Position numbers and translations under genes: made by a program
Assembly: GCA_003978805.1 (NCBI GenBank)
Contig: QNYI01000067.1
Span: forward strand, 1-6,357
DNA length: 6,357 nucleotides
Source: Desulfurobacterium sp.
Lineage (GTDB): Bacteria; Aquificota; Aquificia; Desulfurobacteriales; Desulfurobacteriaceae
Reading direction: 5' to 3'
Notes under the pieces: model-generated
What the model was told of the DNA's origin: nothing
The model's input: only the letters and a program-made list of their open reading frames with translations
Database searches by the model: none
Part shown: positions 1-2,340 of the stretch, piece after piece
Position numbering within the stretch: the first letter of the stretch is position 1
Layout: every line of letters starts with the position of its first letter

Positions 1-123
1 CCCAAAGAAAACTTCTGGATTAACCCGGACTGCGGCCTCAAGACAAGACGCTGGGAAGAGGTTATCCCCGCCTTAAGGAACCTTGTAAGACTTGCCGAAG
101 AGCTAAGAAAAGAAACCAATTAA
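1..123 (+). CDS. C-terminal end of a second MetE-like protein (partial; 5' end outside window)
   Basis: The frame is open from the first base to a TAA at 121-123 and encodes 40 residues that match the C-terminus of the complete MetE on the opposite strand, differing only at residues 26 (R for K), 37 (K for E) and 39 (T for N). It contains the NPDCGLKTR motif, and its cysteine (visible residue 11) corresponds to the last zinc ligand of cobalamin-independent methionine synthase. It is either the tail of a second full-length metE or a surviving fragment; the window cannot decide. Four of the seven coding differences are silent, which suggests selection on the protein and argues weakly for a functional gene. 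It converges on the complete metE with only 42 bp between the two stop codons. If it is only a C-terminal-domain protein or a remnant, that would show immediately upstream of the window. Confidence 0.8.
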   Translation, partial: PKENFWINPDCGLKTRRWEEVIPALRNLVRLAEELRKETN

Positions 124-137
124 AGCTCTTTGCAGCC

Positions 138-151
138 CTCCCCGAGGGGAG
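138..151. terminator. Central hairpin between convergent metE ends; possible bidirectional terminator
   Basis: CTCCCC (138-143) pairs with GGGGAG (146-151) around a 2-nt GA centre, so the real loop would be larger after the innermost pairs open. It sits midway between two convergent stop codons, where a shared terminator is expected. On neither strand is it followed by a run of T (GCGACAAGG on +, GGCTGCAAAG on -), so intrinsic termination is doubtful. It may instead simply be the centre of the large palindrome. Confidence 0.4.
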
Positions 152-165
152 AGCGACAAGGAACT

Positions 166-2340
166 TTAATTGTTTTCTTCCCTTAACTCTTCGGCAAGTC
201 TTACAAGGTTCTTTAAGGCGGGGATGACTTCTTCCCAGCGTCTTGTCTTGAGGCCGCAGTCCGGGTTAATCCAGAAGTTTTCTTTGGGGATAACCCTTAG
301 AGCTCTCTCCACAATCTCCTTCATCTCCTCAGCGCTTGGAACGTAAGGGGAGTGAATGTCCCACACGCCGAGTCCTATCTGTCTGTCAAAGTTAACCTTC
401 TCAAAGGATTGTAAGATGTCTCCCTTAGACCTTGATGCCTCAATGGAGATAACGTCAAAGTCCATCTCAAGTATGTACTCCATGATTTCGCCGAACTCAG
501 AGTAACACATGTGGGTGTGAATCTGGGTTTCGGGCTTTACGGAGGAGTGGCAGAGCCTAAAGGACTTGATAGCCCAGTCAAAGTAATCTTTCCAGTTCCT
601 CTTCTTGATGGGAGCTCTCTCCCTGATTGCCGGCTCGTCTATCTGGACGATTTTAATTCCAGCTTCCTCGTAGTCCCTGATTTCGTCTTTAAGGGCAAGG
701 GCAATCTGGTAAGCAACTTCAGAAATGGGAATGTCCTCCCTTACGAAGCTCCAAGCGATTATCGTCACAGGGCCAGTGAGCATTCCCTTTACAGGTTTTT
801 CTGTTAAACTCTGGGCGAAAGCAATTTCTGGAACGGTCATTACTCCGTCCCTCTCAACGTCTCCGTAGATAATCGGCGGACGGTAGCACCTTGTTCCGTA
901 AGAAATCACCCAGCCGTTGCCGGTTGTGGCTATGCCTTTCATCTTCTCGGCGAAGAACTCAACCATGTCTGTCCTTTCAAACTCGCCGTGAACTAAAACG
1001 TCAAGGCCAAGCTCTTCCTGAATCTTTATGGCCTTGGCAATCTCTCCCTTTACGAAGGTTTCGTAGCTCTCCTTGTCAAGCTTACCCTTCCTGTAGAGGA
1101 GTCTAACCCTTCTGACTTCTTCTGTCTGGGGGAACGAGCCGATTGTTGTCGTCGGGAAGAGCGGAAGGTTAAGGACTTCCTGCTGTTTTTTAACCCTCTC
1201 TTTGTAGCTTGGCTTCCTTACAAAGTCTTCCTCTTTAAGGGCAGAAACTCTTTCCCTTACGGCCTTAATCTCACCGAACTTGTTGTTTATACCCTTAACC
1301 CATTCCCTTGCCTCTCCCTCTTTTCCTTCAAGGATTTCGGCAAGGAGCTTGATTTCCTTCAGCTTCTCCTCGGCAAAGGCTACCTTCTGTAAGAGCTCCT
1401 CCGGGAGTGTTGCACCTTCAAGGTTAACGGGCAGGTGAAACAGAGGAGCTGCGTTTGTGACAGTAAGGTCAAACTTTTCTGAGAGCTCCCTTAAAACCTC
1501 TGCCGTCTTAAAGAGGTTATTTCTCCAGACGTTCCTTCCATCAACAACACCGGCAAAGAGCTTCTTACCACGTGGGTCTAACCTTTTAAGCTGTTCTAAG
1601 TTCTCTCCCCTGTCGTGCACGAGGTCAACGCCGATTCCGCTTACCGGAAGCTCAAAAAGGAGCTCCAGCCTGTCTACGCTATCGTAGTAGGTAAAGAGGT
1701 TAACCTCTCCCTTTACTTCACTTAAGAGGCTGTAGCTTTCAGCGATTGCCTTCCACTCTTCCTCTGAGAGCTCCATAACAAGAGCAGGGTCTTCAAAGTG
1801 AACGGACTTAAAGCTTTTGCTGTTGACGTATTCAACAAGGACTTTTGTGAGCTCCTTAAGAGCTCCCTTAAAACTTCCTTCAGGGAGTCCCTTAGAGAGC
1901 TTGAGGAAGGTAAAGGGAGCGATGATGTGGACGTTCTCAGAAGCTCCTTCGTGTCTGTTCCAGACAGGTTCACAGACCTTAAAAGCGGGTTCTTTGCCTT
2001 CAAAGTCTGGAACTAAATAGTGGTAGTTGGTGTTAAACCACTTTGTCATTTCAAGGGCGTTCTTGCCCCTGCACAGCTCAAAGTACTCCTCTAAGGAGTT
2101 TGCCTTGTAGACGCCAAAAAGGAGTGCAGTGTCAAGCATCGGGTCGTAGAGGGTCATTTCCCCTTGGGGGAAGGCCTCTACGTACTTCCTGTAGGTTTCC
2201 TCCCTCTTTCGGTTTAGCTCCTTGATGCCTTCTCGGAGCTCTTTTTCTGTGACTTTTTGCGCCCAGAAACCTTCAATCAGGCGCTTAAACTCTCTCTGCT
2301 TTCCGAGTCTCGGAAAGCCGTAGGCGTAGGTTTTAACCAT
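166..2340 (-). CDS. metE: 5-methyltetrahydropteroyltriglutamate-homocysteine methyltransferase (cobalamin-independent methionine synthase)
   Basis: This cytoplasmic zinc enzyme moves the methyl group of 5-methyltetrahydrofolate (polyglutamate form) to homocysteine, the last step of methionine synthesis, without B12. The protein has 724 residues, close to the roughly 750 usual for MetE, and has both halves: an N-terminal barrel starting YGFPRLGKQREFK near residue 8, and a catalytic C-terminal barrel from about 395 (PTTTIGSFPQT). Zinc ligands expected for the family are present: His610 and Cys612 (HMC), Glu634 (SIEASRS) and Cys695 (NPDCGLK). The IDEPA motif (about 567-571) and His663 in WDIHSPYVPS, the position of the catalytic histidine, are also present. 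I chose the ATG at 2338-2340 because GGAGGT lies 6 nt before it and MVKTYAYGFPR looks like the true N-terminus. An in-frame start 11 codons upstream would put the ribosome site inside the gene. The leader carries a cobalamin riboswitch. The 3' end is one arm of the palindrome at 1-288. Confidence 0.97.
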   Translation of the reverse strand: MVKTYAYGFPRLGKQREFKRLIEGFWAQKVTEKELREGIKELNRKREETYRKYVEAFPQGEMTLYDPMLDTALLFGVYKANSLEEYFELCRGKNALEMTKWFNTNYHYLVPDFEGKEPAFKVCEPVWNRHEGASENVHIIAPFTFLKLSKGLPEGSFKGALKELTKVLVEYVNSKSFKSVHFEDPALVMELSEEEWKAIAESYSLLSEVKGEVNLFTYYDSVDRLELLFELPVSGIGVDLVHDRGENLEQLKRLDPRGKKLFAGVVDGRNVWRNNLFKTAEVLRELSEKFDLTVTNAAPLFHLPVNLEGATLPEELLQKVAFAEEKLKEIKLLAEILEGKEGEAREWVKGINNKFGEIKAVRERVSALKEEDFVRKPSYKERVKKQQEVLNLPLFPTTTIGSFPQTEEVRRVRLLYRKGKLDKESYETFVKGEIAKAIKIQEELGLDVLVHGEFERTDMVEFFAEKMKGIATTGNGWVISYGTRCYRPPIIYGDVERDGVMTVPEIAFAQSLTEKPVKGMLTGPVTIIAWSFVREDIPISEVAYQIALALKDEIRDYEEAGIKIVQIDEPAIRERAPIKKRNWKDYFDWAIKSFRLCHSSVKPETQIHTHMCYSEFGEIMEYILEMDFDVISIEASRSKGDILQSFEKVNFDRQIGLGVWDIHSPYVPSAEEMKEIVERALRVIPKENFWINPDCGLKTRRWEEVIPALKNLVRLAEELREENN

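What the first reader, a model, noticed from the sequence alone, without database searches (positions are those of the whole stretch)
1..288. Gap-free 288-bp palindrome joins two metE 3' ends tail to tail
Every base from 1 to 143 aligns with the complement of 289-i without a single indel, covering the last 41 codons of both genes and all DNA between their stops. Convergent paralogues normally lose homology right after the stop codon; here it runs to a 2-nt centre. The centre coincides with a short CTCCCC/GGGGAG hairpin. An attractive origin is replication template switching or fold-back at the terminator hairpin of one ancestral metE, creating an inverted duplicate that later diverged. Spacerless palindromes of this size are usually unstable (SbcCD cleavage in E. 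coli), so its survival is notable.
Basis: partly seen in the sequence, partly recalled or inferred. Interest (0 to 1): 0.72.

Follow-up and report, generated by a model that had tools for sequence, protein, structure and literature searches.

The report
Chimeric contig end at metE hairpin
The assembled DNA of a hot-vent bacterium shows two methionine-synthase gene ends facing each other, but another piece of the same assembly and the relatives point to one ordinary gene with its usual neighbour, so the mirror image is probably a splice made during DNA amplification or assembly.

Summary
The inverted repeat is in the sequence: arms 1-143 and 146-288, no indel, 131 of 143 positions complementary. 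It is probably not a genomic feature. The window is a whole contig (C46) of a 62%-complete draft; base 1 is the contig's end. Bases 1-59 are identical to the other arm; all 12 differences lie in 60-143. Contig C32 of the same draft begins with the post-metE hairpin (32 nt, one mismatch to window 166-135) and runs into the radical-SAM gene that follows metE in the nearest relative, Phorcysia thermohydrogeniphila. The window leaves that path at the end of the hairpin's 3' arm, GGGGAGGGC, the reverse complement of the left arm's own hairpin arm. None of 18 family loci examined has an inverted metE copy. The left arm has the relative's base at 7 of 7 coding differences, so it looks like a second natural allele; a C20/C4 contig overlap (11 differences in 329 nt) also suggests mixed strains. 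Best reading: a strand-switch chimera between two strain alleles. No reads were available, so a real inverted duplication is not excluded.

The parts
1..134 (+). Tail of a second metE allele (last 40 codons and stop at 1-123, then 11 nt), read as wrongly joined; 1-59 are identical to the reverse complement of 230-288
135..154 (-). Post-stop hairpin GCTCTCCCC-TC-GGGGAGGGC (minus strand), terminator-like but without a run of T in C32; 135-143 is the 9-nt arm shared by both continuations, the inferred switch point
   Evidence: fold; shared with C32:13-32 exactly; departure after the arm
155..165 (-). Bases between the metE stop and the hairpin, matching C32:2-12 with one mismatch
166..2340 (-). 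metE, complete, B12-independent methionine synthase, 724 aa and stop
   Evidence: NF003556, 910.7 bits against a cut-off of 541
2433..2606 (-). Cobalamin riboswitch upstream of metE
   Evidence: Rfam RF00174, 91 bits

Best explanation
The left 134 bases of this contig are probably the end of a second strain's metE allele, likely joined on in reverse by a polymerase strand switch at the hairpin that follows the gene, and not metE's true neighbour. Shown: the contig ends inside the repeat at a 59-nt exact identity; another contig of the same draft starts at the same hairpin and runs into the family's usual downstream gene; the two continuations share the 9-nt hairpin arm GGGGAGGGC and part at the next base. 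Inferred: a strand copied from allele A through its hairpin ended with this arm, annealed to the complementary 5' arm of allele B and was extended along B in vitro; the assembler followed the chimeric reads until the B tail became identical to A, and stopped there.
For: Window is a whole contig, base 1 its end. All 12 arm differences in 60-143, 59 identical bases at the contig end. C32:1-32 matches window 166-135 with one mismatch and continues into a radical-SAM gene; window 157-6357 and C32 57-4167 lie next to each other, 42 nt apart, in P. thermohydrogeniphila (Pfam). The window follows C32 to the end of the hairpin's 3' arm and then departs; that arm is the reverse complement of the left arm's 135-143. 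Left arm has the relative's base at 7 of 7 coding differences and 10 of 12 differences are transitions, so it looks like a natural allele. Mixed alleles elsewhere in the draft: C20/C4 overlap, 11 differences in 329 nt, one locus in the relative. No inverted copy in 18 of 18 family loci examined. Published precedent: MDA chimeras mostly inverted, primed at 2-21 complementary nt (PMC1855051, abstract and passages); template switching at short inverted repeats (PMC9484634, abstract and passages).
Against: No reads were seen, and no record says that the sample was amplified. Allele B upstream of base 1 was not found: the own-genome searches with window 1-600 and 1-288 hit only C46 itself and C32:1-32. 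PMC1855051 favours intramolecular events, which would give identical arms, and these differ. Of the other 37 ends of the 19 readable contigs sampled none shows an end-anchored fold-back, so a general wave of such chimeras is not seen. The mismatch between C32 and C46 in the shared 32 nt means C32 is not an exact continuation either. The C20/C4 case is one locus only.
Confidence: 0.72

Rival explanations
1. The join was made by the assembler alone: strain B carries the hairpin in flipped orientation, so that a short word is shared by the A path and the reverse complement of the B path, and the graph was walked across strands without any chimeric molecule.
For: C32 and the window share an exact 20-nt word that spans the hairpin; the identity of exactly 59 nt at the contig end has the look of a word-size overlap (recalled: MEGAHIT uses k=59, IDBA-UD k=60). 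One vent study with Phorcysia used both assemblers (PMC12628806, passages), but nothing links this draft to it.
Against: If B's hairpin is not flipped the two paths share only 9 nt, too short for such graphs; B's own sequence past the hairpin is unknown. No exact 59-nt overlap between two contigs was seen among the ends of 19 contigs or the 20 ends searched against the whole draft.
Confidence: 0.16
2. A real genomic tail-to-tail inverted duplication of metE in this organism or in part of its population, arisen by template switching at the hairpin, with gene bodies kept identical and tails diverged.
For: The contig sequence itself; ungapped arms down to the centre; a near-identical second body would make an assembler stop where the arms become identical, as seen at base 1. 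The draft is only 62% complete, so a second copy could be missing.
Against: C32 starts at a metE-type hairpin and continues into the usual neighbour, so a duplication would need a further metE end. 37 of 40 relatives give one metE match, two give two same-strand pieces on one contig, one gives none. No inverted copy at 18 of 18 family loci examined.
Confidence: 0.08
3. Simple fold-back of one molecule at its own hairpin (intramolecular chimera or recent duplication).
For: Inverted orientation and a hairpin at the centre; intramolecular inversions are the favoured chimera type in PMC1855051 (abstract).
Against: Arms differ at 12 of 143 positions, 10 of them transitions, and the left arm has the relative's base at 7 of 7 coding differences; self-priming would give identical arms.
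Confidence: 0.02

Closest known systems
Inverted chimeras of multiple displacement amplification (PMC1855051; abstract and passages)
   Same: Inverted join, short complementary stretch (9 nt here; 2-21 nt there) at the junction
   Different: Arms come from two differing alleles, whereas intramolecular events are favoured there; whether this sample was amplified is unknown
Template switching at short inverted repeats in strand-displacement amplification (PMC9484634; abstract and passages)
   Same: Switch at a short inverted repeat that gives a long inverted-repeat product
   Different: There one template (lambda DNA) and the T7 replisome; here two alleles and an unknown amplification step
Genomic tail-to-tail inverted gene duplication
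   Same: Two convergent metE 3' ends in the assembled sequence
   Different: Second gene seen for 123 nt only; usual downstream neighbour sits on another contig that starts at the same hairpin; not seen in the relatives searched

Membership tests
In-vitro strand-switch (amplification) chimera | Segments joined in inverted orientation | tested here: met
In-vitro strand-switch (amplification) chimera | Short complementary sequence at the junction | tested here: met
   9 nt, GGGGAGGGC
In-vitro strand-switch (amplification) chimera | Normal, unjoined continuation exists in the same sample | tested here: met
   C32, with one mismatch in the shared 32 nt
In-vitro strand-switch (amplification) chimera | Sample was amplified; chimeric reads rarer than normal ones | not testable with these tools
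   no reads, no sample record
Genomic inverted gene duplication | A second metE copy beyond the tail | tested here: inconclusive
   own genome holds only C46 metE and its 1-120 tail, but the draft is 62% complete and C46 ends at base 1
Genomic inverted gene duplication | Usual downstream neighbour displaced from the metE end | tested here: not met
   C32 joins a metE-type post-stop hairpin to the radical-SAM gene
Genomic inverted gene duplication | Same arrangement in relatives | tested here: not met
   0 of 18 family loci examined; 0 of 40 relatives by protein search
Intrinsic terminator | G+C-rich hairpin followed by a run of T | tested here: not met
   hairpin folds but C32 continues ACCTTCATTCTT, read by eye; the terminator scan was not run

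The most novel reading that the evidence does not exclude
Part of this vent population truly carries a spacerless tail-to-tail inverted metE copy, born by template switching at the post-stop hairpin, with gene bodies held identical by gene conversion while the tails diverge.
Probability: 0.08. Interest if true: 0.5.

Novelty: not a real feature. Interest (0 to 1): 0.12.

Why it matters
It keeps a striking palindrome from being recorded as biology and shows a cheap test for such cases: does the repeat stop at a contig end with exact identity, and does a sibling contig start at the same hairpin with the expected neighbour. If the duplication were real after all, it would be a snapshot of hairpin-templated inverted duplication in a thermophile.

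Tried and rejected
Self fold-back of one molecule: set aside because the arms differ at 12 positions in a natural pattern. Plasmid-borne second metE: a distant search with window 1-700 gave 23 plasmid records, none covering 80% of the query; the 20 listed match only within query 245-585, in the conserved metE body. C33/C70 as a second sign of mixed strains: set aside, because the 412-nt match is only 81% identical and lies in two FtsH-like frames (named by eye; no family search), which look like paralogues. Naming the draft: genome contigs did not return the window's own record; the best of 80 loci kept was a Thermovibrio MAG at 80%, and the tool says own records may be left out. A 93% identical JGI protein, P0003, has a tail unlike either arm, so it is neither allele. 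Papers: 5 listed; 1; 1; 6; tail-to-tail, metE and inverted duplication together: 0. Weak 26-38-nt matches to the arms in G002, G006 and G014 (E about 7e-4) were not followed up. Searches (time limit; wrong strand, crashed; missing record) failed and were replaced.

Full report
OBSERVATION. The inverted repeat is real in the given sequence: arms 1-143 and 146-288, 92% complementary, two bases between, 131 of 143 positions matching without indel; 200 base shuffles reach at most 48. The right arm is the 3' end of a complete metE on the minus strand (166-2340, 724 aa), with a cobalamin riboswitch upstream (2433-2606 minus). The left arm holds only the last 40 codons and the stop of a second metE.

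THE WINDOW IS A CONTIG. It is G000:C46:1-6357, a full contig of a draft of 958,870 bases in 168 contigs, completeness 62%. Base 1 is therefore a contig end. The first 59 bases are identical to the minus strand of 230-288, and the 12 arm differences all lie in 60-143; under a uniform spread the chance is 0.0017. This is the pattern expected when a variant path re-enters a known one and the assembly stops. For scale, the longest exact run between this metE and that of the nearest relative is 53 nt. That 59 is a word-size overlap is inference.

WHAT FOLLOWS metE. The nearest relative is G001, same genus, MetE 94% identical. The protein search names the 94% hit on a contig of the same length, 327,746, as Phorcysia thermohydrogeniphila; the genus belongs to Desulfurobacteriaceae. 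There metE is followed by a 221-aa gene and a 926-aa gene; their C32 counterparts match Radical_SAM, and NRDD with intein domains. In the window's draft these genes sit on C32, whose first 32 bases match window 166-135 with one mismatch. Window 157-6357 and C32 57-4167 align to the relative on two sides of one point, with 42 nt between. So the expected continuation of metE is C32.

THE SWITCH POINT. Read on the minus strand, the window follows C32 through the hairpin for 32 nt (one mismatch, at position 12) and then departs: C32 goes ACCTTC, the window TGCAAAGAGC, the reverse of the left arm. The last nine shared bases, GGGGAGGGC, are the 3' arm of the hairpin and also the reverse complement of the left arm's GCCCTCCCC: a natural annealing site for a strand switch. 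The hairpin lacks a T run in C32, so I call it terminator-like only.

TWO ALLELES. At all 7 coding differences the left arm has the base of P. thermohydrogeniphila; it differs from that relative at 11 of 123 positions, the right arm at 18. 10 of 12 differences are transitions. It looks like a natural second allele. That the draft mixes alleles is suggested independently: C20 9177-9505 and C4 1-329 overlap over 329 nt with 11 differences and no gap, and both map to one place in the relative, G001:C3 near 55,498-55,815. This was the only such case among 20 contig ends searched against the whole draft; 36 were prepared and 336 exist.

RELATIVES. Of 40 relatives, 37 give one metE match, G022 and G023 give two pieces on the same strand of one contig, and G013 gives none. 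Of 19 relatives' loci returned, L023 lacks the 3' end and was dropped; in the other 18 the best inverted match to the metE end within about 1.5 kb downstream is 0.37-0.41 identical, which I read as none. The SGGEPT motif of the radical-SAM gene lies 224-327 nt downstream in 14 of 18 (not in G021, G002, G016, G019). With the 288-nt palindrome as query, 18 of 21 family genomes match with both arms at one and the same place and G013, G018 and G019 give nothing; three genomes have an additional weak match of 26-38 nt; in some genomes only part of the candidates was scored.

MECHANISM. Most likely a strand ending with the 3' arm of allele A's hairpin primed on the 5' arm of allele B and was extended in vitro. 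In MDA, over 85% of chimeras were inversions and over 70% of junctions were primed at 2-21 complementary nt (PMC1855051; abstract and passages). Short inverted repeats are sites of template switching in strand-displacement amplification, and that paper cites the same for PCR (PMC9484634; abstract and passages). Palindromic MDA reads are reported in PMC13265396 (abstract). Against this: nothing shows that the sample was amplified, and intramolecular events, which would give identical arms, are favoured in PMC1855051. A join by the assembler alone is possible if allele B has the hairpin flipped, because a 20-nt word spanning the hairpin would then be shared (the word is shared between C32 and C46; B's own continuation is unknown). 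Among the other 37 ends of 19 readable contigs no end-anchored fold-back was found, so the artefact looks local.

VERDICT. Reads were not available, and a real duplication in part of the population keeps a small probability.

Noticed in passing
C20 9177-9505 (L109) and C4 1-329 (L129) of the same draft: Two contig ends overlap over 329 nt with 11 differences, all within 110-248 of the overlap, and map to one place in G001: sign of mixed strain alleles.
   Followed up: partly
C33 6821-7232 (L112) and C70 118-529 (L119): Two FtsH-like frames 81% identical over 412 nt, one cut by a contig end; probably paralogues (naming by eye).
   Followed up: partly
window 2433-2606, minus strand: Cobalamin riboswitch upstream of the B12-independent methionine synthase gene, a familiar arrangement (recalled).
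   Followed up: no
C32 766-3546 (L024): Anaerobic ribonucleotide reductase (NRDD) with intein splicing and LAGLIDADG domains, beside the radical-SAM gene; a 926-aa counterpart is in G001.
   Followed up: no
window 166-229, minus strand: The last 64 nt of this metE differ from G001 at 15 positions, against 197 in 2175 over the whole gene and 8 in 64 for the left arm: the complete gene's tail is the faster-changing one.
   Followed up: no
window 2637-3703: Small GNAT-type acetyltransferase (Pfam PF14542) and a putative SAM-dependent methyltransferase (PF04445), divergent from metE.
   Followed up: no
window 3909-6206: Ribonucleoside-diphosphate reductase alpha subunit (TIGR02506, 587 bits, cut-off 341).
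   Followed up: no
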